From Bacteroidales bacterium (GTDB taxonomy: Bacteria; Bacteroidota; Bacteroidia; Bacteroidales; JAADGE01), in contig JAIORQ010000065.1 in assembly GCA_021108035.1 (NCBI GenBank), positions 1 to 64,000 of the forward strand: DNA of 64,000 nt, in the 5' to 3' direction. Of this stretch, positions 7,936 to 23,494 are shown one piece after another (the first letter of the stretch is position 1; every line of letters begins with the position of its first letter). The notes below the pieces were generated by a model. The model saw nothing but the letters and a program-made list of their open reading frames with translations, was not told the origin of the DNA and made no database searches. The translations under genes and the position numbers were made by a program.

Positions 7936-8017
7936 TTAACCGCTGAAAGGGTTTTCAACCACTTTCAGGACGAGTTGAAACCCTGTCAGAGGTTGAAAAA
8001 CCCTGACAGAGGTTAAG
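7936..8017. repeat. Cluster of palindromic repeats
   Basis: Two near-identical units, AACCCTGTCAGAGGTT and AACCCTGACAGAGGTT, follow each other within 30 bases. They are preceded by related arms (GTTAACCGCTGAAAGGGTTT and TTCAACCACTTTCAGGACG), so the stretch can fold into alternative hairpins. The type is familiar from Bacteroidota intergenic REP-like repeats. No REP-associated transposase gene is present in this window. Confidence 0.6.
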
Positions 8018-8039
8018 CTTTTTAATAAAAAGTATCTTA

Positions 8040-8340
8040 ATTACATTGGCTCTATTTAATGAAATTGTTGTTAGATAAATTTTTTATTTTTATATTTATT
8101 TTTAACAAAAACCGTTAAAACGGTTAATCTTATTCATATTGTTGTCATAACCACGACTAAAGTCGTGGGTTGTAATTTAAAATATTAACCCAAGACTTTA
8201 GTCTTGGGATAATAAAATACAGTCAATCATCCTAACGGTTTTAACCGTTTTCACACAATTAAAGCGAATGTTCTTTAAAAAGATAAACTAAAAAACAAAA
8301 TATATACAGCAACAATTTCATTAAATAGAGCCATTACATT
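8040..8340. mobile_element. MITE-like element B (285 bp) with perfect ends, 8-bp target duplication and hairpin cargo
   Basis: The element proper is 8048-8332. Its terminal inverted repeats are perfect over 23 bp (8048-8070 and 8310-8332), beginning GGCTCTATTTAATGAAATTG. The flanks are both ATTACATT (8040-8047 and 8333-8340), an 8-bp target duplication. Inside are four palindromes in mirror order: AACCGTTAAAACGGTT (8110-8125), CCACGACTAAAGTCGTGG (8151-8168), CCCAAGACTTTAGTCTTGGG (8189-8208) and AACGGTTTTAACCGTT (8234-8249). No gene is encoded. Perfect ends and duplication indicate recent insertion. Confidence 0.85.
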
Positions 8341-8414
8341 AAAGTTTTTTATTCTTTGCACAATAAATATTATGAATTATTTTTGTAATAAATTTGGTTT
8401 TTATAAACCTGTTA

Positions 8415-9056
8415 ATGTTGAAGAATAATATCCTCATATTATTTTTATTTGTATTTGCTGTTTCATGCAATAACAGTGATAACCATAATGTTAGGTTGCC
8501 TGATAATACAAACCGTATATCAAAAACAAATAAAATAAAAGATTCTGTAAGTAATTCAAATGCTGATTACGCTGATAAAGATTTTGATATAATAAAAGGA
8601 AAATCTGTTGTTTTTTTCAGTCTGAATAAAAAGGAATACAATATTTTTATTAACAGAATGGGAAAACATACAAAATGGGAGTTTGATATTATCTATAATA
8701 ATTTCAAAAGAACTGCCGGTAATGCAGCAGAGCCACTTAAAAATATTAATATCAGATCAACTTATACTACTGAAAAAATTTTGACATTTATTACTGCTGA
8801 TAAAGATACACTATATTTTAACAGAGATAATGAAGATTATTTTGTCGGACAGATTTTTTTCGACGGAAAAGATTCTTTATATATCGTTGAAGGCTTATTC
8901 AAAGCAAATAATTTAGAAGAAATGATTATTGATTTTTTTGATATTAAAAATGATTTTAATATTTCTTCTGTAGCTCAAATATCAGATTCTTTCAGGTACT
9001 TTACTCCTGATACAAGTGCCGTAATAAGTGAAGATACCATAATTCCGAAACTGTAA
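8415..9056 (+). CDS. Hypothetical lipoprotein
   Basis: The protein has 213 residues from the ATG at 8415, chosen because MLKNNILILFLFVFAVSC is a clean lipoprotein signal peptide with lipobox AVSC; an in-frame ATG at 8394 would add seven residues that spoil it. The mature part is Asn/Asp/Lys-rich and predicted mostly beta, with no known domain. It has no operon partner: the next gene converges on it from the minus strand. The gene begins just downstream of element B, whose insertion may have changed its upstream region. TAAATTTG at 8389-8396 could be a -7 element. Confidence 0.55.
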   Translation: MLKNNILILFLFVFAVSCNNSDNHNVRLPDNTNRISKTNKIKDSVSNSNADYADKDFDIIKGKSVVFFSLNKKEYNIFINRMGKHTKWEFDIIYNNFKRTAGNAAEPLKNINIRSTYTTEKILTFITADKDTLYFNRDNEDYFVGQIFFDGKDSLYIVEGLFKANNLEEMIIDFFDIKNDFNISSVAQISDSFRYFTPDTSAVISEDTIIPKL

Positions 9057-9095
9057 GTTTAATGTATTTTTTTTTATAAATTTACTGAAAGAAGA

Positions 9096-12000
9096 TTAGA
9101 ATTTGGCACCAATCACTAAAATATCATCAATTTGTTCATAGTTTTCCATCCAATTTTCTAATGAATCCTTTAATCGTTTTCGTTGTTGATCCATAGGCAG
9201 ATCTTGAATATTTAAAAGTAATTTTTTAAATCTGCCGATCATGAATTTTTTGTCTTTAGGCCCGCCGAATTGATCAGCGTACCCATCGGAAAATGTGTAA
9301 AGGGCATCTCCTTTTTCCAATTGAATAACATTATTAGTGAATTTGTCATTACCGATATCGAAATCATAGATTCCGATAGGCATTCTGTCAGCTTCATAAA
9401 TAATTATTTCATTATCTCTTACAATGTAAAGCGGATTAAATGCACCTGCAAATTCAACAATATTTTTTTTACTGTTTACTTTACATAATGCTATATCCAT
9501 ACCGTCTTTAGCTTCATGGGCTTCACCGGTTTGATGAAGGGCTTCAATAACTTTAGATTTCAGCTGATCTAATACTTCTGATGCTTTAAGTTCTTTTTTA
9601 GATGTTCTTATGATACCGTTTAAAAATGAAATCCCCAACATGCTCATAAATGCACCGGGGACACCATGTCCGGTACTGTCTGCTGCTGCATAATAAGTGA
9701 TATTGTTTTTTTCGGCAGCCCAGTAAAAGTCCCCGCTGACAATATCTCTGGGTTTGAATAAGATGAAATTATCAGGCATTAAGCGACTAATCAATTTTGT
9801 GGGAGGGAGAATTGCATTTTGAATTCTTTTTGCATATAAGATACTGTCTTCAATTTCTTTCTTTTGGTGTGTAATTTCATCTCTTTGTTCTTCAGCGACA
9901 TCTCTTTGTGCTTCTATTTCCTCTTTTTGGGCTTCTAATTCAATATTTTTTTCTGTAATTTCAATTGTTCTTTCAGCAACTGTTTCTTCTAATTTTTCGT
10001 TTTGTTTTTGTAAAATTCTTACTCTCCATTTAGATACTAACAAAAAAGTTAAAAGTATTAATAAAATTACCGGAGCAATAAACCACCACTCAAGATAAAA
10101 AGGTTTTTTAATTTCAAAATCAATGCTTTGATAATAACTCCAAATATCGTCTTTTCCTTTTGTTCTGTATTTAAAACTGTATTTTCCCGGTGGTAAGTAC
10201 GGGAAAACGGCAATATTGTCTTTTCCTTTAGATGAAGCATATTCATTATCTAAACCTTGTAAATAGAATTCATATTCAACTGAGTTTTCATCTTTAAAAG
10301 ACAGTCCCGAAATTTCAAAGCTTATATTGTTTTGGCTTGACTTTAATTTTTCAGGCATTTTTAAGAATCGTTCTCCGTTTATTGTTATTGATTCTATTCT
10401 GCAAACCGGAGAATATTTTTCTACTTTTTTCTTTTTAATATCAAACGTAGCAATGCCGTGATATGTACCTATCCATAAAGTATTTCTTTTATCAAGATAC
10501 AAGCCGTCAACTGATATTTCATTACCTAACAAACCGTCTCTTGAGTCAATAATAAACTCAACACTGTTTGTTATTTTATTATAATATTTAACACCTTCAT
10601 CAGTACCAAGCCACAACATTTCAGGATTTTCTGCATGTTCAATTGCCGTAACCGAAATACCGTTGAAAACTTCGGGGTTTACATATTCTAAAGTATCATT
10701 TATATATTCAGCAAGTCCGTTTTGTGTACCTACCCACAGGAATTTTTTATATGTATTTTTATTATTATCATAAATTGAGTCTAAATGTAATGTCCATGTA
10801 TGATAGTTTATATCTTTTAAAGGTTTAAAAGAAGATGAATCGAAAACTACTAATCCTGAATTATTTGCACCGATAATCATATCACCAAATTCAACGATTT
10901 GAGAAAGTAGTATTGTTTCCGGATTTTCAATTTTTATCGGATCAGATTTTATATCTTTAAGATAATAAACTATACCGGTGTTTCCGGTCATTAAAAAAAT
11001 TTCATCATTTTTTGTAACGAAAATATCATTCAGATGAAATAATGTATTTTTAAATTTTTTTTCTTTTTTTACCCTTAAAGTTTTTTGGTCTATAATAAAA
11101 ATTCTTTTTGTATCGGCAATAATTATGTCATGATTACTCATTTCCCCTATTACAAATGAATTATTCTTTAGTTTCAGCACATCTGTAAAGTTGGAAATTT
11201 CACCTTTTATATAATGAATTCCTGTACTCATTCCAATCCAAACTCTTCCTGTTTTATCCTTAAAAACTGAATTTATTGTACTGTTTAGATGCCGGGGGTA
11301 TAAGATTCTTAAACTTTTATTGGTTAGTTTTTGAATGCCTCCGGAAAATCCAAACCAAAAATTTTCTTCATTATCCATAAAAAAAGATAATATTTTTTGA
11401 TTTAATAAACCGGTATTCTTATCATAAACAATTGGTTTTTGTTTTAATGTAAGTAATTGATAAATTTTATAATCTGATATTAACCACAGAGAACCGTTTT
11501 TTGTTTGTTTAATCTCTTTAATCGGAGTGTTATGGATATTCAAAAGATCGTTGATCTTTGATGCTTCTTCTATTGATGTGATTTCTGTATCTGTATAATA
11601 AAAACCTGTATTTGTAGATATCCAAAGTCTTGAGTCTGTATCGTAAAAAGCAAACAAACAAAACTCATCAACTATTTTTTCTGTTTGTTTATCTCTTAAA
11701 TAATATAAACCTTCTCCCGATGCGATAATAAATTGATTTGATTCAGGTTTTTTTGAAATAGAATTTATTTTTTTCGGCAAATTTTTAATTAATTTATTTA
11801 AATAAACCTCTTTCCCTTTTTCGTCTATGGAGTAAATTCCTTTATCTCCGTAGAAGAACTTAACTTTATTATCAATATAAATTCCTTTAAACGGAATCCC
11901 GTTAAAATAAGTTTTAAGTGTTTCTGTTTTTTTATCTAAAACTGTAATTCCGTTAAGACCTGCAAAATATATTTTACCTTCTTTGTCTTGATTAATACTC

Positions 12001-13775
12001 ATAACTGCATTTCCTGCCGTACCTGATTTGGTATTATATATCTTCATTGACCTGCCGTTATATTTTGCAGCACCTGAGTATGTTCCGAACCAAAGATATC
12101 CTTCATTATCTTGAAAGATTGATAAGGCATCTTCTTGAGGTAAGCCTTTCTCTTTTCCGTAAAAAACAAAGGGGAAATATCCTTCTTGATATGTTTCGTG
12201 CAATACTGTTAAATAGTTTTGAGCAGATTGCATGGTCATACCTGCTTGATGTTTGAAGTATTCATCAAAAATTCCGTTTTTGCGGGCATATTCAAAAAAC
12301 TCAAGTATTTTTTGTCTTAAAAGAGCTTGATTTTTTTTTATTGCCCATCCCATCTTTCTGATTTCTCCAATAATAAATTTTGCTTCTAATTCAGGAAAGT
12401 CAGCAAGTTTAAAAACTGAAATATTAGAAATTGTATAATCAGCTTTACCTTGTATAACATCAGAAAAGAAATTATTTCCGGTGTTGTAATAATAATTATC
12501 AATATTATTAAGTGATAAGGCATGCTCGTAAGAGGATCCTTTAGAAGTAACACCTGTAAGATTTTTAAGATCATTTACAGAACTTATTTTCGTATCTTTT
12601 CTGCCGATTACAACTTTTGCATTAGGCATAAAATCAAGAACATCAACTTTTTTAAGTCGCCAATCCAAAGGATCAATTAAATCACAAGCAACATCAAATT
12701 CATTAAACCATTTAGGATTATAGGCACTGTCTTTAATAATGATGCCTTCATCGTTTTCAAAATATCTTGAGAATTTTTCTGTTATAACAAATTCTGCTTT
12801 CAGTCCCAAATAATCAGCAAAACTTTCAGCCAACAAATGGTTAAATTGTTTCTTTCCTTCAGGATGATACACAAGATCTCTGTCTCTTAATGCAATAATA
12901 ATCTTTCCGGAGCTCTTAATTTCATCAAAGTCTCTAATTTCAGCACTTTTAATAAGGTTTGAATATGAATTGATAATTTCAAGATATGTTGAATAGTCAA
13001 TATCATATTTTTCTCTGAAAAGTTCATCAAGCTTACCGTTACCTTTAATGGTTTCAAAGAAGTTTCGAATTTCTTTTTGGATTTCCGAATTTCCTTTTCT
13101 CACTGCCCATCCTACATCTTGAGGTTTATTTACAGGAAAAGAAAGTTTGAGGTTTTCATTGTTTTTTACATATGAGAGTGCTAAAAAAGAGACAGTTATA
13201 AGTCCGTCAACTTTGTTATCAGTAAGTAATCGCAAAGATTCATCTTCAGATTTGGTTTTTACGAATTCAATTCCTCCGCCTATTTTTTCATTTATTAAAG
13301 AAATGTTAGTTTCATAAGTAGAGTTTTCAAGAAAAGCAATTTTTAGTCCTGCAAGGTCTTTATTGCTTTTTACTTTTTTTGAAATGTTTTTTTTTGTGAT
13401 AAGCAGATCACTGATTTGAATAATTCCTGAATAATCAAAGAATTTTTTTCTCCAGTCCAACACATATATTGTTCCGCAAATTATATCAGCCCTTTTTAAG
13501 GCATCGGGAGTGTATGATATATCAGGATTTGTTTTGTAATCTTCCGGAATTTTTCCGTTATGTGCAAATACATCATCCCAAGTAATAGTAACATTATTGA
13601 ATTCTATATCAAGAAATTTGGCAAACTCTTGTGCTGCTGTATAATTAACAGTGTTCTTCCAACTTTCGGTAAATGCAATATCAATCTCCCCTCTTTTTTT
13701 TACATCTTTTAATGTTTGAGCATTTAAAAAAAAAGGCAAACTTAAAGTTAATATCAAATAAAATAGTCTTTTCAT
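9096..13775 (-). CDS. Giant hybrid sensor: two SBP_bac_3 domains, Reg_prop propeller, Y_Y_Y, membrane anchor and SpoIIE/PP2C phosphatase
   Basis: The 1559-residue protein has signal peptide residues 1-19 (MKRLFYLILTLSLPFFLNAQ). Two family-3 periplasmic solute-binding domains follow at about 20-265 and 285-515 (GEIDIAFTESWKNTVNYTAA; GKIIIALRDRD). Two-component-regulator propeller repeats span about 540-1115 (EGYLWFGTYSG, KTGRVWIGMSTG, RNTLWIGTYHG), then a Y_Y_Y domain to about 1225 and one membrane helix near 1230-1255. Inside the cell a long coiled coil (1265-1320) precedes a PP2C/SpoIIE phosphatase (SGDFYWAAE, AADSTGHGVPGAFMSMLG, ALYTFSDGYADQFGG). By analogy with SiaA it would dephosphorylate the SiaC-like protein encoded upstream on the same strand (14091-14483), in response to ligands bound outside. 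A 111-bp gap with a terminator separates it from that operon. Confidence 0.88.
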   Translation of the reverse strand: MKRLFYLILTLSLPFFLNAQTLKDVKKRGEIDIAFTESWKNTVNYTAAQEFAKFLDIEFNNVTITWDDVFAHNGKIPEDYKTNPDISYTPDALKRADIICGTIYVLDWRKKFFDYSGIIQISDLLITKKNISKKVKSNKDLAGLKIAFLENSTYETNISLINEKIGGGIEFVKTKSEDESLRLLTDNKVDGLITVSFLALSYVKNNENLKLSFPVNKPQDVGWAVRKGNSEIQKEIRNFFETIKGNGKLDELFREKYDIDYSTYLEIINSYSNLIKSAEIRDFDEIKSSGKIIIALRDRDLVYHPEGKKQFNHLLAESFADYLGLKAEFVITEKFSRYFENDEGIIIKDSAYNPKWFNEFDVACDLIDPLDWRLKKVDVLDFMPNAKVVIGRKDTKISSVNDLKNLTGVTSKGSSYEHALSLNNIDNYYYNTGNNFFSDVIQGKADYTISNISVFKLADFPELEAKFIIGEIRKMGWAIKKNQALLRQKILEFFEYARKNGIFDEYFKHQAGMTMQSAQNYLTVLHETYQEGYFPFVFYGKEKGLPQEDALSIFQDNEGYLWFGTYSGAAKYNGRSMKIYNTKSGTAGNAVMSINQDKEGKIYFAGLNGITVLDKKTETLKTYFNGIPFKGIYIDNKVKFFYGDKGIYSIDEKGKEVYLNKLIKNLPKKINSISKKPESNQFIIASGEGLYYLRDKQTEKIVDEFCLFAFYDTDSRLWISTNTGFYYTDTEITSIEEASKINDLLNIHNTPIKEIKQTKNGSLWLISDYKIYQLLTLKQKPIVYDKNTGLLNQKILSFFMDNEENFWFGFSGGIQKLTNKSLRILYPRHLNSTINSVFKDKTGRVWIGMSTGIHYIKGEISNFTDVLKLKNNSFVIGEMSNHDIIIADTKRIFIIDQKTLRVKKEKKFKNTLFHLNDIFVTKNDEIFLMTGNTGIVYYLKDIKSDPIKIENPETILLSQIVEFGDMIIGANNSGLVVFDSSSFKPLKDINYHTWTLHLDSIYDNNKNTYKKFLWVGTQNGLAEYINDTLEYVNPEVFNGISVTAIEHAENPEMLWLGTDEGVKYYNKITNSVEFIIDSRDGLLGNEISVDGLYLDKRNTLWIGTYHGIATFDIKKKKVEKYSPVCRIESITINGERFLKMPEKLKSSQNNISFEISGLSFKDENSVEYEFYLQGLDNEYASSKGKDNIAVFPYLPPGKYSFKYRTKGKDDIWSYYQSIDFEIKKPFYLEWWFIAPVILLILLTFLLVSKWRVRILQKQNEKLEETVAERTIEITEKNIELEAQKEEIEAQRDVAEEQRDEITHQKKEIEDSILYAKRIQNAILPPTKLISRLMPDNFILFKPRDIVSGDFYWAAEKNNITYYAAADSTGHGVPGAFMSMLGISFLNGIIRTSKKELKASEVLDQLKSKVIEALHQTGEAHEAKDGMDIALCKVNSKKNIVEFAGAFNPLYIVRDNEIIIYEADRMPIGIYDFDIGNDKFTNNVIQLEKGDALYTFSDGYADQFGGPKDKKFMIGRFKKLLLNIQDLPMDQQRKRLKDSLENWMENYEQIDDILVIGAKF

Positions 13776-13861
13776 TAAAACCGGTTTACCGTTTAATATG
13801 CTCTGCGAGCTTATATTTATTTTTGCTTTTTTAGGCTTTGTAATTTGACTCTGATAACAAA

Positions 13862-13887
13862 AAAAGTATCAATTAGATGATACTTTT
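13862..13887 (-). terminator. Rho-independent terminator of the siaBBC-xseB operon
   Basis: AAAAGTATCA and TGATACTTTT form a 10-bp stem around a 6-base loop, and on the minus strand it is followed by a run of T. It directly abuts the xseB stop codon and precedes the sensor gene, so the sensor probably has its own promoter or depends on read-through. Confidence 0.75.
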
Positions 13888-14087
13888 CAAAGAATATTAT
13901 TTTCAAAGATTTTTTCAATTTGTTCTTCTGTTTTAAGCAATTTAGTTTTACAAGTTTCTAAAAGAAATGAAACTCTTTCTACTTTTTCAGAGAGTTTATC
14001 AATTTCAACTTCATTGTTTTCAACTTCATAAAGAATATCTTCTATTTCTTGTATTGCTTCACTATAAGAAATTTCTTTTTTTGCCAT
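13887..14087 (-). CDS. xseB: Exodeoxyribonuclease VII small subunit
   Basis: The 66-residue protein fits the XseB family in full: the pattern SYSEAIQEIEDILYEVENNE, then EIDKLSEKVERVSFLLETCK and a C-terminal helical KLLKTEEQIEKI. XseB binds XseA in ExoVII, which degrades single-stranded DNA. It starts only three bases after the SiaC-like gene stop, so it is co-transcribed with the Sia-type switch rather than with xseA, which is not in this window. That placement is odd, but the sequence match is good. An alternative is a coiled-coil adaptor that only resembles XseB. Confidence 0.75.
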   Translation of the reverse strand: MAKKEISYSEAIQEIEDILYEVENNEVEIDKLSEKVERVSFLLETCKTKLLKTEEQIEKIFENNIL

Positions 14088-14090
14088 AAA

Positions 14091-14483
14091 TTATTCTTCT
14101 TCAAATGGGATCATATTAATTTCTAATCCTGTATCCAACATATAATCTTCAATATCTTCTTCCATATCAATATCGTCTTCATCATAATGCCAGTTTATTG
14201 TAACTTCTCCACCGTCTTCTTCATAGTCTTTTAAAATATTTAAGAGATCAAGAATGCTTCTGGAAGTACTTGTATTGAAATAAGTTAGCTTTATTTCAAA
14301 AGACAAAGTTTTCTTAACTTCAGTAGTGAATTCTTCAAGCCATTGAACCAATGGGTCATAAAACTCAATAGTGTCTTCCAAAAATGATTCCCCTGACAGT
14401 ACGCATATTCCTGTTTCAACATTAAAATCTACGGAAGGAATAAAGAAATTAGTATGCGAACCTTCAATATATATATTTTCCAT
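14091..14483 (-). CDS. siaC: SiaC-family regulatory phosphoprotein (DUF1987)
   Basis: The 130-residue protein matches SiaC/DUF1987: N-terminal beta strands, an acidic middle (ESFLEDTIEFYDPLVQWLEE) and the phospho-acceptor neighbourhood KLTYFNTSTSRSILDLLNIL. In the studied Pseudomonas SiaABCD system the Thr after FN is phosphorylated by the SiaB kinase and dephosphorylated by SiaA; here the equivalent is Thr71 (inference by motif). Unphosphorylated SiaC activates the diguanylate cyclase SiaD there, but no GGDEF gene lies in this window, so the downstream target is unknown. It is encoded between the second SiaB-like gene and xseB, same strand, with tight spacing. Confidence 0.85.
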   Translation of the reverse strand: MENIYIEGSHTNFFIPSVDFNVETGICVLSGESFLEDTIEFYDPLVQWLEEFTTEVKKTLSFEIKLTYFNTSTSRSILDLLNILKDYEEDGGEVTINWHYDEDDIDMEEDIEDYMLDTGLEINMIPFEEE

Positions 14484-14502
14484 TTATTTATGTTTTTATT
14501 AA

Positions 14503-15045
14503 TTATTTATCAACTTTAACTGCGAGTGAAAAGTATGAAGTGTTTTCATCAATAGGATTAATCTCAAGATCAAGCGGATTGCCGGATGTTAAAGCAACAG
14601 TTATAAGGCCTATATTAGGGCTGTGTTTTTCGCCGGCACCTTCACGTCTTACATTTCGTTTATATTCCCTCAATCCTTGATGATCCAAGTTATTAATATT
14701 CTTACTGTTTTCCATCATCGGAATAAGGTCTTCATTATTAATTGGATTTCCGGTAACTAAAATAAAACTTTTGATGGTTTCTTTAAGTATAATAGTACCG
14801 GCACCAACTTCTTTTCCGTTTTTAAGTAATATTTTTTCGGATGAATAATTTGATATATTTTCTGCTAACTCAAAAAATATTTTAAACAGTTTTTTTGTAG
14901 CTTTTTCCGATAATTCATTAATAACAGAAATATAATCTCCCAAATATGTTATTATTTTACCGTCAACAGGTCCTTTGTATGAAATTCTGATTTCTTCCGA
15001 AAACAAACTTTGACCTAAACTAAGTTTTTTATTTATTGTGTTCAT
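14503..15045 (-). CDS. SiaB-like protein kinase (DUF6272), second copy
   Basis: The 180-residue protein is paralogous to the product of 15029-15586. Shared blocks are ISYKGPVDGKIITYLGDYI (compare MTYTGPFDGQVLSMFG), the GHKL-type N-box helix FFELAENISNYSSEK, GAGTIILKE, and a C-terminal SPNIGLITVALTSGNPLDLE. In the Sia system this family is a serine/threonine kinase acting on SiaC. Two adjacent kinases may receive different inputs or form a heterodimer. The start overlaps the preceding gene by 17 bases, indicating translational coupling. Confidence in the family is good; substrate assignment follows from the neighbouring SiaC-like gene. Confidence 0.8.
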   Translation of the reverse strand: MNTINKKLSLGQSLFSEEIRISYKGPVDGKIITYLGDYISVINELSEKATKKLFKIFFELAENISNYSSEKILLKNGKEVGAGTIILKETIKSFILVTGNPINNEDLIPMMENSKNINNLDHQGLREYKRNVRREGAGEKHSPNIGLITVALTSGNPLDLEINPIDENTSYFSLAVKVDK

Positions 15046-15586
15046 TATTTATAGTTTTATTAATTTTAACAGCAATTATATAAAATGATGTTTTTTCATC
15101 AACATCTATTATTTCGTAATCCAAAGGGTTTCTTGACAACAGAGCGGCTTGAACTAAACCGATATTACCTGTTCCCCTGTCTCCGGGAGGTAATTTCCTG
15201 AGCTCTCTTTTGTAGGCTCTTAAACTGTCTCTGTCATAGGAATTTATTTTAGTGCATTTTTCTTTTAATATCTCTTTGTGTTTTTCATTTATGGGATTAC
15301 CTAAAAGAAAATAAAAATAATCGTTAAAATTTTGAATGATAAAGGTTCCTACTCCGGCTTTTTCACCTTTTTTTGTTGTTTTTTTTTCATGTGAATAATA
15401 AGAAACATTTTGAGCTAATTCTATAAAAACTTTGAAAATAGTTTTATTTAGTCTCCTGTCTTCAGAAATCGTATGTTCAATATTCTTGCCGAACATAGAC
15501 AACACTTGACCGTCAAAAGGTCCTGTATATGTCATTAAAACATTTTTTCCCGATAATCTTGTATATACACTTTGTGTTGAATTCAT
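15029..15586 (-). CDS. SiaB-like protein kinase (DUF6272), first copy
   Basis: The 185-residue protein is first in the operon. It shows the N-box-like helix VFIELAQNVSYYSHEK, GVGTFIIQNFN, GNPINEKHKE and the signature GDRGTGNIGLVQAALLSRNP, where the Gly-rich stretch likely forms the nucleotide lid. The second copy carries GEKHSPNIG at this place, so the two differ in the lid and may differ in activity. Known family role: phosphorylation of SiaC. The upstream region (15587-15700) is AT-rich and should hold the promoter; no clear TAnnTTTG spaced to TTTG was found on the minus strand. Confidence 0.8.
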   Translation of the reverse strand: MNSTQSVYTRLSGKNVLMTYTGPFDGQVLSMFGKNIEHTISEDRRLNKTIFKVFIELAQNVSYYSHEKKTTKKGEKAGVGTFIIQNFNDYFYFLLGNPINEKHKEILKEKCTKINSYDRDSLRAYKRELRKLPPGDRGTGNIGLVQAALLSRNPLDYEIIDVDEKTSFYIIAVKINKTINNEHNK

Positions 15587-15720
15587 TATAAGGTTTTTTC
15601 ATTAAATAATAATGACATATAAAAAACAAATTTATAAAATCTTTTGTATTTGAAAAAAAGATATTTGTTACAATGTCGTTATTTTAACTAAAAAAGAGAG
15701 GGTCTGAACCTTAATAAGTA

Positions 15721-15810
15721 CTAATCTATTGAGCTAATTCCGAAAGTTTTAAGGACTTCCTTTTTTATAAGCTTTTTATCTTCAATATCTTGGCACTTCT
15801 TTTTGCTCAT
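15721..15810 (-). CDS. Possible 29-residue small protein
   Basis: In the 301-bp gap between the Sia operon and the MFS gene, an ATG at 15810 opens a 29-codon frame on the minus strand beginning MSKKKCQDIEDKKLIKKEVL. It is charged and helix-prone with one Cys. No ribosome site is obvious and no family is recognised. It may be a real small gene, a remnant or chance; the rest of the gap (15587-15720, 15811-15887) shows nothing else. Confidence 0.25.
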   Translation of the reverse strand: MSKKKCQDIEDKKLIKKEVLKTFGISSID

Positions 15811-15887
15811 AATCGCTCAATTTAGGTTTAATTAAGTATAATATTTTTTAAGAATAATAACTTTGCATTTTATTATATGAAAAAATA

Positions 15888-17117
15888 ATGCCAAAAATTA
15901 ACAATAATATAAATTTAAAGGCAAACAGGAACAGATATGTTTTTCATGGCTTCTTTTTGGCCGGAGCAATCTCAATTGCTGATACATCAACCGTATTGCC
16001 TTTAATAATAAATTTTTTTAATGGTGATGTACTGTTGGTAGGCATTTTATCTTCGTTAATGAAAGGAGGTGTAATTATTATGCAGCTTTGGACGGCATTT
16101 AAAGCTCAAGAACATAAATTTGTTTTAAGTTCTTTGAAGAAAGTCTTTATATTCAGATTCTTAACTTGGTTTTCTGTTGGATTGTCAATATTACTATTCT
16201 CCGGTGCAAGTGATGTTATTGTATTGGTTTTAATAAGCATTTTTCTGTTTTTATTTTCATTCTCTGCCGGAGTGGGGATTATTTATTATCAAGAACTTTT
16301 GGGGAAATCATTTACTAAAGAGTATAGAGGAAAAGTTATTGCGATTAAACAAATTGCATCCGGAACTGCCGGAATTATCAGTGGCGGGATTTCTGCATTC
16401 ATACTAAAATCTTTTAATAAACCTGAAAGTTTTTCATATTTATTCATTATAAGTGCAATTTTTATAGCAATAAGCTATGTGATCTTTTGGAATTTTAAAG
16501 AACCTGAAAAAGAGCAAGTATCAAAAAAAGAAAATAATTTTAAGGATTTTTTAATAAATGCCGGATTAGTGTTGAAGTCCGACAGAAATTTACAATTTCA
16601 AATTTGGAGTAGATTTTTGTCGTACGGGCTATTTTTGATTTTCCCTTTTATAATATTGAAAGCAAAAGATGATCTTGGCATCAGACCTGAAGACATTGGT
16701 GTTTTAATAGCACTTCAACCTGCAGGTGCAGTTCTTGGTAATTTTTTATGGGCATTTTTGTCATCAAGAAACCGAAATAAATATGTAATTCTAATTTCTT
16801 TCGGTTTGGTTGTATTATCTGTTTTGGGTACTTTTATTGCAACTGATATTTGGTATTATTATATAATTTATTTTTTGTTAGGTGCGTCTGTTGATGGTTT
16901 CAGGCTGGCTTTTAGTAATTTGATTTTAATTATTGCTCCTGAAAATAAACGACCGGTATATATTGCTATACAGAATAATTTATCATCTTTGGGCTTATTT
17001 TTTGCAATTCCCGGAGGAATGATTTTGAGAAAATTTGACTTTTCTTATTTAGCGTACTTTACATTGTTTGTAATGCTTGCAGGTATAATCTTCAGCATTA
17101 TGTTAAAAAAAGAATAA
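15888..17117 (+). CDS. Major facilitator superfamily transporter
   Basis: The 409-residue protein has about twelve hydrophobic segments. The first helix carries ISIADTSTVLPLIINFF, and the loop between helices 2 and 3 and the central basic loop (FKEPEKEQVSKKEN) follow the MFS layout with two six-helix halves. The substrate is not readable. It is the first gene of an operon with a DUF364-like protein (25 bp downstream) and a membrane-NTPase fusion; this company suggests export or import of a metal chelate or small cofactor rather than a sugar or drug, which is inference. Confidence 0.8.
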   Translation: MPKINNNINLKANRNRYVFHGFFLAGAISIADTSTVLPLIINFFNGDVLLVGILSSLMKGGVIIMQLWTAFKAQEHKFVLSSLKKVFIFRFLTWFSVGLSILLFSGASDVIVLVLISIFLFLFSFSAGVGIIYYQELLGKSFTKEYRGKVIAIKQIASGTAGIISGGISAFILKSFNKPESFSYLFIISAIFIAISYVIFWNFKEPEKEQVSKKENNFKDFLINAGLVLKSDRNLQFQIWSRFLSYGLFLIFPFIILKAKDDLGIRPEDIGVLIALQPAGAVLGNFLWAFLSSRNRNKYVILISFGLVVLSVLGTFIATDIWYYYIIYFLLGASVDGFRLAFSNLILIIAPENKRPVYIAIQNNLSSLGLFFAIPGGMILRKFDFSYLAYFTLFVMLAGIIFSIMLKKE

Positions 17118-17142
17118 AAATAAAAACATAACATTAAATCAT

Positions 17143-17847
17143 ATGTTAAAAGATCCTTTGCAAATTTTCTATGACAGATACAAGTTTGACAAATCTGAAA
17201 TCAAAGAAGTAATATTCGGAAAAATTTATACAGCAATTATTCTAAAGACCGGAAATATTGGTCTTTCAGCTAATTTGAATGATATTAAACAAAATTCTTT
17301 CTCTTACAATAATACACTTGATCTTTTAAATCCGGATCATCGTTTAATACTCAATGCATATTATAATGCTAAGTTTAATTATAAATCCAAAGGTCAATTA
17401 AATAAAGATTTATTTGATGAAATTAATTTTAATTCTTATCGAAATATAGTAATGATCGGTTATTCTAAACCAATGCTTAATAAGTTGGATTCAAAGGAAC
17501 AAGATATCTATATTTTTGATAATTCAATAAATGACAATATCATTGTTGATCAAAGTCTTCAAAAAAAACATTTATTCGAAGCAGAATGTGTTATTTTAAC
17601 AGCTACAACCATTGTGAATAATACTTTTACGGAGATAGTAAGTAATTCCGGTTCAAGTTGTGATTTATTTTTAGTAGGACCTTCAACTCCGATGTCTGAA
17701 GAAATGTTTAAATATAGAAACGTAAAAGCTCTTTTCGGTACGATTTTTAAAAAGAACGATACGGAAGTTATTAATATTATTAAGAAAGGAGAAGGAACAA
17801 GAATATTTAAACATCTCGGAAAAAAAGTAGCTTTGATTAAAAACTAA
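17143..17847 (+). CDS. DUF364/DUF4213-like Rossmann-type protein (putative metal chelation)
   Basis: The protein has 234 residues. The C-terminal half shows the DUF364 pattern: NIVMIGYSKPMLNKL, ECVILTATTIVNNTFTEIV (the T-x-T-x-x-N element) and DLFLVGPSTPMSEEMFKY (GPSTP element). Proteins of this family are linked to heavy-metal chelation; biochemical function is poorly defined. The N-terminal half resembles the DUF4213 enolase-N-like domain (EVIFGKIYTAIILKTGNIGL). The stop codon overlaps the ATG of the next gene by one base, so the two are translationally coupled. Confidence 0.65.
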   Translation: MLKDPLQIFYDRYKFDKSEIKEVIFGKIYTAIILKTGNIGLSANLNDIKQNSFSYNNTLDLLNPDHRLILNAYYNAKFNYKSKGQLNKDLFDEINFNSYRNIVMIGYSKPMLNKLDSKEQDIYIFDNSINDNIIVDQSLQKKHLFEAECVILTATTIVNNTFTEIVSNSGSSCDLFLVGPSTPMSEEMFKYRNVKALFGTIFKKNDTEVINIIKKGEGTRIFKHLGKKVALIKN

Positions 17848-19565
17848 TGCAGATATATAAAAAGGAATTTAAAGATATTTGGCTTAAAGCTGCAGTATTA
17901 GGTAGTTTATGGGGAAGTATTGAAATTATCATCGGTAGTTTCTTCCATAATATAAGACTTCCAATGGCAGGAACCATTCTTGCTGTTCTGGGCATAAGTT
18001 TGATTACTGCATTCGGACAGACATGGAAAGATAAAGGTTTGTTTTGGAGAGCGGGATTAATATGTGCTGTGATGAAATCAGTTTCACCGAGTGCAATTTT
18101 AATAGGTCCGATGACGGGTATTCTTTTTGAGGCATTATTGTTTGAATTAGCAGTTTTTCTTTTCGGAAGAAATATATTTGGTTACGTTTTGGGTGCTGTA
18201 TTTGCCTTATACAGTGTCGTAATTCATAAAGTTATGGCTTTGATTATTATATATGGCTTTGACCTTGTGAGAATTACTGAAAACTTTTATTTCTTCATTA
18301 TAAAACAATTAAACATTGAAAATATAAGTTTTATTCAGGCATTTTTTACGATGAGTTCTATATATATATTACTTGGGCTTATTGCTTCGGCAGTTGGTAT
18401 TATTATTGGTAAAAAAGCAGTTATTTCAAGACAAGCTTATATAAATAATGCTGAAATAACTCTTTCTAAGAACAAAGATGTTGTAAGCCCCGGCGGAAAC
18501 AACAGTTCATTGATTATGCTTTTTGCTCATTTGATTTTCATTATATTAGTTTTGACATTAACAAATATGTTTTCATTAGCATTGGCTTTTGGTTTAACAT
18601 TGGTATATTCAATCTTTGCAATTATTAAATATAAAAGGCCCTTGAGATATTTCAAACGTCCTTGGTTTTGGATACAAATATTTTTATTTATAGTTATTTC
18701 GGCATTATTTTATGATGGTTTTAATAAAGAAACTTATTTTACTTCAGAAGGAATTGCTGCCGGATTAAAAATGGGTGTACGTGCCGTATTAATTGTTATT
18801 GGATTTTCTGCCGTAAGTTCTGAACTCAGAAATCCTCTAATCAAAGTTTTATTGTATCGTCGCGGTTTTTGGCAATTTTATATCGCACTTAGTTTGGCAT
18901 TTTCTGTTTTGCCGCATTTAATTAAAAATTCTGCACGCCCAAAAAAAATACTCAAAAGTCCTTTGAAATTTTTAGTAGGTAATATTTATGATGCAGAAAT
19001 TATATTAGAAGAATTCAAAAAGAAAAAAATTTGCACCGAAGTTATAATAATTACAGGGAAGAAGCAAGGCGGCAAAACAACATATGTTCAATCTCTAATT
19101 AAAATTTTGCAAAATAAAGGTTATACAGTAAAAGGTTTTTCGGCAAAAGGAAAGTTTAAAGATAATGTACATTCCGAATTTTATATTTCAGATATTCAGA
19201 CAGATGAAAGTATAATGATTTGTAATACCGAAGGTACTGAAGATCAAAAACGCACAGGACGATTTTACTTTAACGAAGAAGGATTAAATTTTGGAAAAAA
19301 TATTTTAAAACCTGAGAAACTCGGACAAACCGATTTTGTGGTAATTGATGAGATTGGCCCTTTTGAATTGAAGGGCAGGGGATGGACGGAATCAATCGAG
19401 AAGTTGTTGGAACATGATGATTACAAAATGATTTGGGTGGTCAGAGAAAAATTGGTATATGATATTTTAAGGCGATTTGGTATAACGAAAGGAATTATTG
19501 TTGATATAAAAAAATATCTTCCGGAAGATATTATTGATGAGTTGACAAAATTCATGCACCCGTAA
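17847..19565 (+). CDS. ECF-like membrane protein fused to a THEP1-type NTPase
   Basis: The 572-residue protein has three parts. Residues about 8-185 are a multi-pass S-component-like region (LKAAVLGSLWGSIEIIIGSF, GLICAVMKSVSPSAILIGPM). Residues about 225-375 are a second membrane block with EcfT/CbiQ-like features (GLKMGVRAVLIVIGFSAVSS, ELRNPL, then basic helices). Residues about 395-572 are a soluble NTPase_1 (THEP1-like) domain: Walker A ITGKKQGGKTTYV, RTGRFYFNEEG and Walker B FVVIDEIGPFELKGRGW. In ordinary ECF transporters energy comes from separate ABC-type EcfA ATPases; here the only nucleotide-binding module is the fused THEP1-like one. Transport is inference. Confidence 0.7.
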   Translation: MQIYKKEFKDIWLKAAVLGSLWGSIEIIIGSFFHNIRLPMAGTILAVLGISLITAFGQTWKDKGLFWRAGLICAVMKSVSPSAILIGPMTGILFEALLFELAVFLFGRNIFGYVLGAVFALYSVVIHKVMALIIIYGFDLVRITENFYFFIIKQLNIENISFIQAFFTMSSIYILLGLIASAVGIIIGKKAVISRQAYINNAEITLSKNKDVVSPGGNNSSLIMLFAHLIFIILVLTLTNMFSLALAFGLTLVYSIFAIIKYKRPLRYFKRPWFWIQIFLFIVISALFYDGFNKETYFTSEGIAAGLKMGVRAVLIVIGFSAVSSELRNPLIKVLLYRRGFWQFYIALSLAFSVLPHLIKNSARPKKILKSPLKFLVGNIYDAEIILEEFKKKKICTEVIIITGKKQGGKTTYVQSLIKILQNKGYTVKGFSAKGKFKDNVHSEFYISDIQTDESIMICNTEGTEDQKRTGRFYFNEEGLNFGKNILKPEKLGQTDFVVIDEIGPFELKGRGWTESIEKLLEHDDYKMIWVVREKLVYDILRRFGITKGIIVDIKKYLPEDIIDELTKFMHP

Positions 19566-19682
19566 TTTTGTATGAAGTACTCATGTTTTTGTTTTATTCA
19601 GATTTTAAGTCTTCAACCGGATTGCAGGCAATTGATTATATCCAAACAAAGTTGATTTTTTTTCCGAAAACTCTTAAAAAAC

Positions 19683-20774
19683 CTATGAGATTGGTATCGT
19701 AAAATGAAATTTAGTTCCTCTTTTCAATTTGCTTTCAACCCAAATTTTGCCATTGTTTTTTTCAATAAATTCTTTACATAAAATCAATCCCAAGCCTGTT
19801 CCCTTTTCATCATTTGTACCGGGTGTTGAATGTATAGTATCTAATCTGAATAATTTATTCATGTCTGAATTACTGATCCCCACACCTGAATCCGATACGA
19901 TAAATTCAACAAATTCATCATGCTTCACAGTGCTTAATATTACTTTCCCTTTCTCTTTTGTGTATTTAAAAGCATTATTTATTAAGTTGTTAAGAGTACT
20001 TGTTAACATATTTTTGTCTGCATAAACAAACAAGTCGTTTTCGGGTCCGGTTTCAAATGCTATGTTTTTATTTATTGATGTAGTTTTAAAAATTTCAGCA
20101 ATATCCGGAAACAACTTTTTCAGTAAGATTTTTTCAGGATCATAAGGTATGCTGCCTTGTTGAGCACGAGACCATTGAAGTAAATTATTTAAAAGCCTGA
20201 AATTTTGTTCGGCACTTTTATGTAACAAATTAACAAGTTGTTTAATTTTTTCTTTAGGATAATTATCAACGTTATCTTTTAACATTTCGGTAATTCCCAA
20301 TAATCCGTTAAAAGGCTCTGCTAAATCATGAGCAATAATAGAAAAAAACTTGTCTTTGGTTGCATTAAGTCGTTTAATTTCTTTAAAACTGTCAGATAAC
20401 TTTAATACAGAGTTTATTCTTGCTGATAATTCATTTTTTGTAATAGGTTTTGAAATAAAATCAGTAGCTCCTGCTTCAAAAGCAACTCTCAGATTCTCTG
20501 AAGCCAACATAATGCCGGTTAACATAATAACCGGAATTTCTTTTGTTTCAGCATCAGCTTTTAAATTCATAATTAAATCAAGTCCGCTTATTGAGGGCAT
20601 CTCCCAATCAGTAATAATTAAATCAGGAAGTCTGCTTTTCGCTAATTTCATAGCTTTTTCACTTCTGTTTGTTTTTATAACGTTAAATGAAGGATTAATT
20701 TCGTTGAGATATGCATATAATAATTGCAAGTTTTGATAATCATCATCAACAATTAATATTTTATGTGTTTTCAT
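19683..20774 (-). CDS. Response regulator-histidine kinase hybrid (REC-HisKA-HATPase)
   Basis: The 363-residue soluble protein begins with a CheY-like receiver (ILIVDDDYQN; phospho-acceptor Asp in LPDLIITDWEMPSISG, about residue 56; Lys in FISKPITKNEL). A HisKA dimerisation helix follows with FFSIIAHDLAEPFNGLLG (His about 150), then the HATPase boxes LNNLINNAFKYTKEKGKVIL, VSDSGVGISNSDM and GTGLGLILCKEFIE. There is no membrane segment. Receiver-first hybrids usually pass signals inside a phosphorelay; it may act with the membrane kinase encoded 44 bp upstream on the same strand. Confidence 0.88.
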   Translation of the reverse strand: MKTHKILIVDDDYQNLQLLYAYLNEINPSFNVIKTNRSEKAMKLAKSRLPDLIITDWEMPSISGLDLIMNLKADAETKEIPVIMLTGIMLASENLRVAFEAGATDFISKPITKNELSARINSVLKLSDSFKEIKRLNATKDKFFSIIAHDLAEPFNGLLGITEMLKDNVDNYPKEKIKQLVNLLHKSAEQNFRLLNNLLQWSRAQQGSIPYDPEKILLKKLFPDIAEIFKTTSINKNIAFETGPENDLFVYADKNMLTSTLNNLINNAFKYTKEKGKVILSTVKHDEFVEFIVSDSGVGISNSDMNKLFRLDTIHSTPGTNDEKGTGLGLILCKEFIEKNNGKIWVESKLKRGTKFHFTIPIS

Positions 20775-20818
20775 TTGTATAGATGTTAAATACGCATTTT
20801 CTTAATAATTCAAAATTA

Positions 20819-23368
20819 TTATAATTTAAGTAGTTCTGCAAATAAATCTTCATCAGTTATAAAAAGAGCATTTTTCATTTTATTTTTCCAATCTGTAATT
20901 CCTTTGCTTTTAGTTGAATCAATTTGAGCTAATATTTTTTCCGTTTTACTTATATCATAAACTTCAATTTTTTTCAATTTATCAATAAAGGTTTGCAAAT
21001 ATTCAGCATCTGAAGATGTAAGTATCAATTCCGACTTTAATATTTTTTCGGGCAGAATATCTTTATCCGGATTGATGTCTTCTCCTTTCGGTAAGGTAAA
21101 CCAAAAAGTGCTGCCTTTTTTCTGCTTTGATTTAACACCAATTTCACCGCCTTGTGCTTCAATTGCTAACTTGCAAAATGTTAGGCCAAGTCCTGTAGAG
21201 TAAAAGTATATTTCATCGGATTTTTTTTTAGAAATTTGTTCAAATTTATCAAAAATTTTATCAAGTTTATCAGGCCGAATTCCTATTCCTGTATCTGTAA
21301 CTGATATTTTTAAAAAAGAAAGTTGTGAATTGTCAACTCCCGATTTTTTGTTATTTTTCACTGTAACATCACAATTTATAATAATACTTCCGTTATTAGG
21401 TGTAAATTTTATTGCATTCGTAAGAATATTAATGAATATTCTTGTTGTTTTCTCAATATCTGATAAAGCACCGTATTCATGCGGTATATTGTTTTCGATA
21501 TTCAGGTTCTTTTTTTCAATAAGAAGTGTTACTTGTTGTAAAGCATTTTCTGCAATAAAATGAACTGATTCGTTTTTAATATTAATATCTATTTGTGTTT
21601 CTTCAAATTTTTGAACATCAAGAATATTTTGAACCATTGTTAACATTTGACGACCTGATTGTTTTGTGTATGCAACATTATCACTGTTTATAATAATGTT
21701 TAAAGGGTTTTTCAAATCATGCACAATCATTCCTATTATTGAATCTTTAAATTTATCAAGTTCAATCAAATGTTCATTGACAGTTCTTAATTTATCTGCT
21801 TGGTTGTGTATTTCTTTTTTTTGCTTTTTTAGTTCTTTATTTTTTAATTTTAACTCAATTATTCTCTCTTTCACTATGTTTTCAAGTTTGATATTTTCTG
21901 ATTCTAATCTTCTTGAATTCAGCTTTTGTACGAAACAAATAAATAAATACCATAGAATTAATATTGCAAGATGAAGAAAGTTTTTCAGGTAATAAAATCT
22001 GTTTTTGAGATAATACAAAACAAATGAAGAATCTCCGATTTCAAAATGTATATATGTATTCTTATTATTTTGAAATGTATTAAAATAACCTATACTTTGA
22101 CCGCAAAAATGTAACGGAAATTCTCTTTTGGATTTCAAATCATTAGTATAAATATTTAACTTATGATTTTCGACAGTAATCAGTTCAGGAATATTATCAT
22201 TTTCTAAATCTCTAAAACCATAAATATACGGATTATTACCGGTTTTAACTTTTTTAATTAACTCAAGTTGATTGTTATACTCCAATATTTCATTATTCTT
22301 TTGGCTAAGTATAATAATATTATTTGTCAATTGATTTACAAATAATCGCATAAAAACATCGCCTTGTTTTATAAGTTCCTTCTTATTAACTATTTCACCT
22401 TTCAAATTTACAATTATTAAATTAGGTGAAAATGTTGAATCAATTAATGATTTTGTTAAAGAAATAATGTGAGTTTTATTATTAATTTTAATATTATCAG
22501 AAAAAGTATTTTTCGTCCATCCTTTATGTTCTATGGGAGGGAATACATAATCAACATCTTTGTTATATAACAAAGTATATGAGGAAAAATCACCGTATTT
22601 ATACACCTTATTTTTATATTTATTGTATAATCTAATGGTATCAGGATGTAATGATTTTTCAAAATCAGATTTTTGCTTTGTTGATATACTGTTACCTGAT
22701 GCATAAACTTCAGTCGGTAGGATATAATCTTCGTTTTCGCCGCAAATAAATTTAAAGTTTTTAACAATAATACTGTTCAAGGGACTAATTTTCAGTTTTT
22801 TTGTGAGAGAATTATAATTATATATTTTTCGAGGTTGAACGGAAAAACCTGCATGAAGATCAAATACAATATTGTTATTATCCAAAAAATCAATATTATA
22901 ATTTATGATATCAGGATAATCGTTATAATTTTCAATTGAATCTATAAAAATTTTTTGTGCTTTAAAGTGAGTATGACTTTTTTCGTTAAATTCCAGAATA
23001 TTTAAATAAGCTTTATTTCTGTATGCCGAAATAAAATATATTTCTTTAAAACCGTTTAGGTCATTATCAGCGAATTCTATATTTTCACTCATAAAGAATT
23101 CATCATCAGAAGAGTTATATAAGTCAAGATATATATTTTCCCTTAAAATATCAATTGAATGGCCGGGGCTTTTTTTTCTGATATATTCAATGGTTTCGGA
23201 ATTTCCGTCATTATCAAGATCTGAGTAATAATGTTGTATTTCGGGAATCTTTTTTTTTTCTGATATCTGCTCAATTTTGTATCTGTTTAGATAGTTGTCA
23301 GGAATAATTAATATTGTTGTAATTGCTAAAGTTGCACTTATAAATATATTGACAAGCTTATTTTTCAT
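20819..23368 (-). CDS. Membrane sensor histidine kinase with FG-GAP-like extracytoplasmic region
   Basis: The protein has 849 residues. An N-terminal membrane or signal segment (LVNIFISATLAITTILIIP) is followed by about 440 periplasmic residues with FG-GAP-like units (YYSDLDNDGNSETIEYI, FADNDLNGFKEIYFI, FRDLENDNIPELITVE). A membrane helix lies at about 468-488, a coiled coil at 490-540, the HisKA His in GMIVHDLKNPLNI (about 549), and HATPase boxes NILTNAIKFTPNNGSI, VTDTGIGIRPDKLDKIF and STGLGLTFCKLAIE. About 75 C-terminal residues after the catalytic domain have no known fold and end in ITDEDLFAELLKL. The hybrid kinase at 19683-20774 follows it. Confidence 0.85.
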   Translation of the reverse strand: MKNKLVNIFISATLAITTILIIPDNYLNRYKIEQISEKKKIPEIQHYYSDLDNDGNSETIEYIRKKSPGHSIDILRENIYLDLYNSSDDEFFMSENIEFADNDLNGFKEIYFISAYRNKAYLNILEFNEKSHTHFKAQKIFIDSIENYNDYPDIINYNIDFLDNNNIVFDLHAGFSVQPRKIYNYNSLTKKLKISPLNSIIVKNFKFICGENEDYILPTEVYASGNSISTKQKSDFEKSLHPDTIRLYNKYKNKVYKYGDFSSYTLLYNKDVDYVFPPIEHKGWTKNTFSDNIKINNKTHIISLTKSLIDSTFSPNLIIVNLKGEIVNKKELIKQGDVFMRLFVNQLTNNIIILSQKNNEILEYNNQLELIKKVKTGNNPYIYGFRDLENDNIPELITVENHKLNIYTNDLKSKREFPLHFCGQSIGYFNTFQNNKNTYIHFEIGDSSFVLYYLKNRFYYLKNFLHLAILILWYLFICFVQKLNSRRLESENIKLENIVKERIIELKLKNKELKKQKKEIHNQADKLRTVNEHLIELDKFKDSIIGMIVHDLKNPLNIIINSDNVAYTKQSGRQMLTMVQNILDVQKFEETQIDINIKNESVHFIAENALQQVTLLIEKKNLNIENNIPHEYGALSDIEKTTRIFINILTNAIKFTPNNGSIIINCDVTVKNNKKSGVDNSQLSFLKISVTDTGIGIRPDKLDKIFDKFEQISKKKSDEIYFYSTGLGLTFCKLAIEAQGGEIGVKSKQKKGSTFWFTLPKGEDINPDKDILPEKILKSELILTSSDAEYLQTFIDKLKKIEVYDISKTEKILAQIDSTKSKGITDWKNKMKNALFITDEDLFAELLKL

Positions 23369-23431
23369 ACATCATTTTCGTTACATACAAATATAATATT
23401 TTTTTCCATATTTAAAAATGCAAGATATTAA

Positions 23432-23460
23432 TTGAAACAAACTAATATAGCTTATATTTG
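23432..23460 (+). promoter_or_regulatory. Bacteroidota-type promoter of the nucleotide-sugar genes
   Basis: TTG at 23432-23434 and TATATTTG at 23453-23460 are separated by 18 bases, matching the -33/-7 layout of Bacteroidota SigA promoters. Transcription should begin near 23467, leaving a leader of about 28 bases before the ugd ATG. Confidence 0.7.
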
Positions 23461-23494
23461 CAAAATTAATTTTTAAACATCTAAAAAAATAAAT

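What the first reader, a model, noticed from the sequence alone, without database searches (positions are those of the whole stretch)
9096..15586. Sia-type phosphorelay with two kinases and a giant ligand-sensing phosphatase
SiaB-like (twice), SiaC-like and a SpoIIE/PP2C phosphatase are encoded together, but the SiaA role is taken by a 1559-residue protein with two solute-binding domains, a propeller and Y_Y_Y. The two kinases differ in the Gly-rich lid (GDRGTGNIG against GEKHSPNIG). No diguanylate cyclase lies near, so the output is open.
Basis: partly seen in the sequence, partly recalled or inferred. Interest (0 to 1): 0.7.

Follow-up and report, generated by a model that had tools for sequence, protein, structure and literature searches.

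The report
Sia phosphoswitch without cyclic-di-GMP, paired kinases
A Bacteroidales bacterium carries an on/off protein switch known from Pseudomonas, but its genome lacks the signalling enzyme which that switch is known to control, and the switch has two paired kinases, one of which looks worn out, beside a huge outside-sensing phosphatase.

Summary
The genes are real: SiaB1, SiaB2, SiaC (Thr71 = Pseudomonas Thr68) and a 1559-aa protein with two solute-binding domains, propeller, Y_Y_Y and a SiaA-type PP2C. The block is conserved in relatives. New: (1) no GGDEF match in the whole genome, yet 19 SiaC-like genes, all with Thr/Ser at the phosphosite, and 39 SpoIIE matches. In 198 genomes of the order, SiaC is in 87, GGDEF in 6, both in 1. 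The output is therefore very unlikely to be a diguanylate cyclase. (2) The kinases are unequal. In 44 of 44 SiaB-SiaB fusions examined the first ATP lid keeps at least two of three Gly positions; the second has none in 37 of 44. The window pair, from another SiaB subfamily, splits the same way: two Gly in 11 of 11 SiaB1 rows, none in 11 of 11 SiaB2 rows. (3) Distant relatives have SiaB-SiaC-SiaB-SiaC; here one SiaC was apparently lost. Ligand and output stay unknown.

The parts
15029..15586 (-). SiaB1: SiaB-family kinase, lid GDRGTGNIGL, N-box ELAQN; predicted active protomer
14503..15045 (-). SiaB2: SiaB-family kinase with eroded lid (GEKHSPNIGL) and N-box ELAEN; predicted weak or regulatory protomer; model matches SiaB 6kko_A (Z 19.8)
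14091..14483 (-). SiaC: STAS-like substrate, phosphosite Thr71 (codon at 14271-14273)
13887..14087 (-). xseB, exonuclease VII small subunit (66 aa), 3 bp after SiaC; present at this place in 9 of 9 loci with the gap readable
13861..13888 (-). AT-rich hairpin followed by T run, terminator-like, conserved in 9 of 9 aligned gaps
9096..13775 (-). giant sensor phosphatase, 1559 aa
12990..13715 (-). solute-binding (Venus-flytrap) domain 1 of the giant, about residues 21-262
12195..12953 (-). solute-binding domain 2 (MltF-like), residues 275-527
10326..12155 (-). two-component-regulator propeller (Reg_prop), about residues 541-1150
   Evidence: one repeat reported as the best stretch; extent by inference
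10107..10298 (-). Y_Y_Y domain, residues 1160-1223
10026..10097 (-). single transmembrane helix, residues 1227-1250 (read from the sequence)
   Evidence: position only
9102..9956 (-). SiaA-type PP2C/SpoIIE region, residues 1274-1558; the Asp motifs VSGDF, DSTGHG, FSDG, QIDD are present
15888..17117 (+). divergent MFS transporter, conserved beside the block in 8 of 9 named loci
17143..17847 (+). DUF364 protein (putative heavy-metal chelation), same conservation
17847..19565 (+). membrane protein with C-terminal NTPase_1 domain, same conservation

Best explanation
A Sia-type phosphoswitch that does not use cyclic-di-GMP. SiaB1 and SiaB2, the descendants of two kinase genes that each had its own SiaC, now share one SiaC. 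SiaB1 phosphorylates SiaC on Thr71; SiaB2, whose ATP lid is eroded, most likely acts as a weak or regulatory partner of SiaB1 (a heteromeric kinase with one working protomer). The giant neighbour senses a small molecule in the periplasm with two Venus-flytrap domains and, through propeller, Y_Y_Y and one membrane helix, sets the activity of a SiaA-type PP2C that takes the phosphate off SiaC. Unphosphorylated SiaC binds and changes a target encoded elsewhere; the target is not a diguanylate cyclase, since the genome has none. The module is one channel among many: 19 SiaC-like genes, 11 SiaB domains and about 36 SpoIIE phosphatases in one genome. Shown: gene identities, phosphosite, catalytic Asp of the phosphatase, conservation of the block, absence of GGDEF matches, lid asymmetry. 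Inferred: phosphorylation, who acts on whom, heteromer, ligand, target.
For: Families and PDB matches; SiaB2 model matches SiaB 6kko_A at Z 19.8, SpoIIAB and RsbW at 12-13.5. SiaB1-SiaB2-SiaC in 9 of 9 named loci, followed by the giant in 8 of 8 that run on (L074 ends inside SiaC). GGDEF: 0 in own genome; both SiaC and GGDEF in 1 of 198; every one of the 87 SiaC genomes also has SiaB. Phosphosite Thr/Ser in 19 of 19 own SiaC. Few classic partner-switch parts: 2 STAS matches, 2 HATPase_c_2 matches over cut-off against 39 SpoIIE matches. All 20 genomes with the giant's sensor also have SiaC, against 87 of 198 overall (hypergeometric 2e-8, relatedness not corrected). Lid asymmetry: tandem SiaB-SiaB first domains 44 of 44 with two or three Gly, second domains 37 of 44 with none (strict motif 44 against 3 of 44, discordant 41:0); window clades 11 of 11 against 0 of 11. 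Fusions SiaB-SiaB and SiaB-SiaB-SiaC in one chain argue that paired SiaB domains work together on SiaC.
Against: No phosphorylation has been measured. The active Pseudomonas SiaB itself has only one Gly at the three lid positions (SGA), and 2 of 24 other NIG-type genes have none, so lid loss does not prove inactivity; N-box Glu and Asn are kept in SiaB2. The 44 tandem proteins include the 3 of the own genome, 1 seen in passing and 40 of the best-scoring match rows, so proteins with two poor domains could be under-sampled. The giant has a probable separate promoter, and in 16 of 20 genomes its orthologue lies apart from Sia genes. The genome is a 95%-complete draft. GGDEF is rare in the order anyway, so its absence is not tied to SiaC (p 0.17). 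The model of the two solute-binding domains was too poor to use (pLDDT 57).
Confidence: 0.55

Rival explanations
1. Two separate kinase channels: SiaB2 serves the adjacent SiaC, SiaB1 serves a SiaC encoded elsewhere (the orphan at G000:C96:5820-6206), so no heteromer exists.
For: In L085, L087, L088 and L091 each SiaB is followed by its own SiaC. The window SiaC groups with the second-position SiaC genes (92/90 support). Of 19 own SiaC genes only C96 besides the window's scores better with the window-subfamily profile (104.5 against 77.3 bits).
Against: The C96 excess is modest and it is a long branch. The alternative grouping with first-position SiaC is not rejected (AU p 0.297). SiaB1-SiaB2-SiaC stays together with SiaB2's lid eroded in all 11 rows, which fits sharing better than two full channels.
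Confidence: 0.25
2. The giant phosphatase acts on another SiaC or on several; its place beside this operon is a matter of history.
For: xseB and a conserved terminator-like hairpin lie between; no Sia gene beside the giant in 16 of 20 genomes; about 36 SpoIIE proteins could serve this SiaC.
Against: Adjacent in 8 of 8 named loci that run on and also in G062 and G167 of another family.
Confidence: 0.25
3. SiaC works like SpoIIAA/RsbV: its unphosphorylated form frees something held by SiaB, for example a sigma factor, and SiaB rather than SiaC is the output.
For: Fold match of SiaB2 to SpoIIAB and RsbW (Z 12-13.5); SiaC is STAS-like (PMC8457831 and PMC7647112, passages).
Against: The best match is SiaB itself by a wide margin (Z 19.8). 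In Pseudomonas SiaC, not SiaB, is the effector (PMC8457831, passages). No sigma factor was sought here.
Confidence: 0.12
4. Classic SiaABCD with a diguanylate cyclase encoded elsewhere.
For: Only the 5% of the genome that is missing could hold it.
Against: 0 GGDEF matches, controls ring in 8 of 14; 86 of 87 SiaC genomes of the order have none.
Confidence: 0.02

Closest known systems
SiaABCD of Pseudomonas aeruginosa (PMC7647112, PMC8457831)
   Same: SiaB-fold kinase, SiaC with Thr at the phosphosite, SiaA-type PP2C; genes together
   Different: No SiaD or any GGDEF match in the genome; two unequal SiaB genes; the phosphatase carries two solute-binding domains, propeller and Y_Y_Y; many SiaC paralogues
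Hybrid propeller/Y_Y_Y sensors of Bacteroidetes (hybrid two-component systems; recalled)
   Same: Reg_prop and Y_Y_Y periplasmic sensor over one membrane helix
   Different: Output is PP2C instead of histidine kinase, with two added solute-binding domains
BvgS/EvgS tandem Venus-flytrap kinases (recalled)
   Same: two tandem solute-binding domains in a periplasmic sensor
   Different: phosphatase output and an extra propeller; no sequence match was tested
SpoIIAB/SpoIIAA and RsbW/RsbV partner switches
   Same: GHKL-type Ser/Thr kinase, STAS-like substrate, SpoIIE-type phosphatase; fold match Z 12-13.5
   Different: sequence families are SiaB and SiaC, not HATPase_c_2 and STAS

Membership tests
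SiaB family kinase | match to NF038262/DUF6272 above curated cut-off | tested here: met
   131.1 and 119.4 bits against 85; 107 and 99.4 against 26.6
SiaB family kinase | SiaB fold | tested here: met
   SiaB2 model to 6kko_A, Z 19.8, 152 aligned, rmsd 2.1; SiaB1 not modelled
SiaB family kinase | N-box Glu/Asn (Glu61 is the predicted catalytic residue in PMC7647112) | tested here: met
   ELAQN in SiaB1, ELAEN in SiaB2
SiaB family kinase | Gly-rich ATP lid | tested here: inconclusive
   SiaB1 GTG; SiaB2 none; the active Pseudomonas SiaB has SGA
SiaB family kinase | phosphorylates SiaC | not testable with these tools
   needs a kinase assay
SiaC family | match to PF09345 above cut-off | tested here: met
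   131.8 bits against 24.5
SiaC family | Thr/Ser at the Thr68 position | tested here: met
   Thr71
SiaA phosphatase (equivalog NF038263) | whole-protein score above 700 bits | tested here: not met
   165.8 bits, C-terminal region only: a SiaA-type PP2C domain, not a SiaA equivalog
SiaABCD system | SiaD-type diguanylate cyclase as output | tested here: not met
   no GGDEF match in the genome
RsbW/RsbV partner switch | HATPase_c_2 kinase and STAS substrate | tested here: not met
   window proteins hit DUF6272 and SiaC only

The most novel reading that the evidence does not exclude
In Bacteroidales the Sia switch is a genome-wide, many-channel Ser/Thr signalling network free of cyclic-di-GMP, and its paired SiaB kinases, fused or side by side, are obligate unequal heteromers: one protomer with a working ATP lid and one lid-eroded regulatory protomer, a state reached independently in two SiaB subfamilies whenever two SiaB share one SiaC.
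Probability: 0.4. Interest if true: 0.78.

Novelty: new variant of a known kind. Interest (0 to 1): 0.6.

Why it matters
SiaC-type switching is described in the papers I could search only for cyclic-di-GMP control in Pseudomonas (searches, open-licence library only). Here the same kinase, substrate and phosphatase families are multiplied in an order with almost no diguanylate cyclases. That shows the switch is a general module whose outputs are open, and it makes a concrete, testable proposal: one working and one eroded kinase protomer per pair.

Tried and rejected
Search for an output gene: clustering of ORFs around Sia loci gave only 4 families in 3 or more loci, none specific. Class III cyclase as output: 3 in the genome, one near an orphan SiaC but with another gene between, not pursued. 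Ligand: the AlphaFold model of the two solute-binding domains was poor (mean pLDDT 57), so no fold search was made; by alignment to AncQR the Arg is kept and the Asp is Val in domain 1 (that these residues bind carboxylate and amine in amino-acid binding proteins is recalled). RNA families at 8000-24000: none. A shared promoter motif in the divergent intergenic region: alignable but nothing sharp. Ion channel: a pentapeptide-repeat protein with an Ion_trans_2 domain follows the SiaB-SiaB-SiaC fusion in 3 of the 12 such loci looked at (own, G104, G062), so it is a lead for a paralogue, not for the window's SiaC; in four others (L149, L151, L152, L156) a nucleotidyltransferase follows.

In the lid count one of the 40 fetched loci (L157) held a single SiaB domain at the end of a 639-aa frame and dropped out; the 44 proteins are 39 loci (L186 gave two) plus L143 and the own genome's three. 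Of the 56 SiaB and 59 SiaC rows the trees used 42 and 41: near-duplicate loci L074, L079, L082, L083, the Pseudomonas row and most own paralogues were left out.

Full report
What is there. On the minus strand lie SiaB1 (15029-15586), SiaB2 (14503-15045), SiaC (14091-14483), then xseB (13887-14087), then the 1559-residue protein (9096-13775). Both SiaB proteins pass the SiaB-family and DUF6272 cut-offs, SiaC passes PF09345. SiaC aligns with Pseudomonas SiaC over most of its length, E 1.3e-15, and Thr71 sits on Thr68. The giant starts with a signal-like stretch, has two solute-binding domains (SBP_bac_3; the second MltF-like), propeller, Y_Y_Y, one membrane helix and a PP2C whose nearest solved relative is SiaA (E 7e-27; next best 1.7e-4). 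It scores 165.8 bits against the SiaA equivalog cut-off of 700, so it has a SiaA-type domain but is not SiaA.

A 66-codon gene starts 3 bp after SiaC and is exonuclease VII small subunit (35 bits against cut-off 24). It is found at the same place in 9 of 9 loci whose gap could be read (window and L075-L082). An AT-rich hairpin with a T run follows in all nine (-11 kcal/mol, z -2.7 in the window). The giant is therefore probably transcribed on its own.

Conservation. A scan of named genomes with SiaB1 gave 9 loci, all Bacteroidales- or Chlorobiota-labelled MAGs. SiaB1-SiaB2-SiaC is kept in 9 of 9 (SiaC cut by the contig end in L074), and the giant follows in 8 of 8 that run on (in L078 and L082 the contig ends inside it). 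Opposite lie MFS, DUF364 and NTPase_1 genes in 8 of 9 (not L081). Farther out, G062 and G167 have SiaB-SiaC-SiaB-SiaC, another SpoIIE protein and then the giant. An orthologue of the giant's sensor half is in 20 of 198 genomes; Sia genes lie beside it in 4 (own, G104, G062, G167) and not in 16, some of which are on short contigs. All 20 have SiaC (hypergeometric 2e-8, not corrected for relatedness).

No cyclic-di-GMP. The 95%-complete genome has 0 GGDEF matches while the search rings in 8 of 14 controls. It has 19 SiaC-like places, 11 SiaB domains in 8 proteins over cut-off, and 39 SpoIIE matches, by my count in 36 open frames, but 2 STAS and 2 HATPase_c_2 matches over cut-off. All 19 SiaC have Thr (10) or Ser (9) at the phosphosite. 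In a sample of 198 genomes of the order, SiaC is in 87, SiaB in 89 including all 87, GGDEF in 6, SiaC with GGDEF only in G066. By my count, 41 genomes have 10 or more SiaC (scoring stops at 21 candidates). GGDEF is rare throughout the order, so this is not a trade-off (p 0.17); it does mean that SiaC must have other partners.

The kinases. The lid NIG (or HIG) is a subfamily trait: both window kinases and all 24 other genes of that type have it. What is special is SiaB2: in 11 of 11 rows of its clade (window and L074-L083; some of these are near-duplicates) the three positions before NIG hold no Gly and a Pro, and the N-box reads ELAEN; 0 of the 45 other rows of that alignment has both. SiaB1 rows keep GTG in 11 of 11. 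I then fetched 40 further loci, chosen from the rows whose open frames had the length of fusions. With L143 and the three own fusions this gave 44 proteins with two SiaB domains, 12 of them also with SiaC (own C55, L143, L147-L156). First domains: 44 of 44 have the strict lid motif; second domains: 3 of 44; discordant pairs 41 to 0. In Gly counts: first 43 with two and 1 with three; second 37 with none, 4 with one, 1 with two, 2 with three. N-box Glu and Asn are kept in 44 and 42, so the second domain may still bind nucleotide. By contrast, where each SiaB has its own SiaC (L085, L087, L088), both lids are intact; in the fourth such locus, L091, the second is not. SiaB1 groups with first-position kinases (87/81) and the window SiaC with second-position SiaC genes (92/90), though the alternative is not rejected (AU p 0.297). 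My reading: an ancestral pair of kinase-substrate couples lost one SiaC, the two kinases came to share the other, and the lid of one decayed, as it did independently in the fused kinases. Against it: the active Pseudomonas SiaB has SGA, a single Gly, and 2 of 24 other genes have none, so lid loss does not equal inactivity.

A possible second substrate. Of 19 own SiaC only two score better with the window-subfamily profile than with the profile of the others: the window SiaC (219 against 108) and C96 (104.5 against 77.3). C96 has no kinase beside it. It may be the relocated partner of SiaB1.

Mechanism and limits. I commit to a SiaABC-like switch with the giant as ligand-gated phosphatase, SiaB1 as main kinase, SiaB2 as weak or regulatory partner, and an unknown target that is not a diguanylate cyclase. 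No step of the chemistry was tested. Literature: of PMC8457831 I saw abstract and passages, of PMC7647112 and PMC9239204 passages, of the rest search listings only. Searches for SiaC or SiaB with Bacteroidetes, partner switching, DUF1987 and DUF6272 found no paper on Sia systems of Bacteroidetes in that library; papers outside the open-licence library were not searched.

Noticed in passing
window 13887-14087: xseB (exonuclease VII small subunit) sits inside the Sia operon of this clade, 3 bp after SiaC; no xseB-like ORF was found in the other held loci.
   Followed up: partly
window 15888-19565: Divergent MFS, DUF364 (putative heavy-metal chelation) and membrane-NTPase_1 genes are conserved beside the Sia block in 8 of 9 named loci; possibly the transport system of the sensed solute.
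   Followed up: partly
L028 6553-8547, L143 9279-11294, L147 3446-4401: A pentapeptide-repeat protein with an Ion_trans_2 domain and a TIGYGD filter motif follows the SiaB-SiaB-SiaC fusion gene in own, G104 (cut by the stretch) and G062: a candidate output for that paralogue.
   Followed up: partly
L145 4566-7622 (G000:C23): A propeller/Y_Y_Y sensor with a class III nucleotide cyclase output, 1.7 kb from an orphan SiaC with one opposite-strand gene between.
   Followed up: partly
L025 7661-8959 (G000:C33): SiaB-SiaB fusion followed by three SiaC genes in a row, all with Ser at the phosphosite.
   Followed up: no
L018 (G000:C68:42575-49530): SpoIIE, SiaB and SiaC genes followed on the same strand by a TerB/ABC-2 transporter fusion of 1084 aa.
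   Followed up: partly
L157 1133-3052 (G035:C34): SiaB domain at the C-terminus of a 639-aa protein whose first 450 residues match no Pfam family.
   Followed up: partly
window 19683-23368: A response-regulator/histidine-kinase protein and an 849-aa histidine kinase lie together on the minus strand beyond the conserved divergent genes.
   Followed up: no
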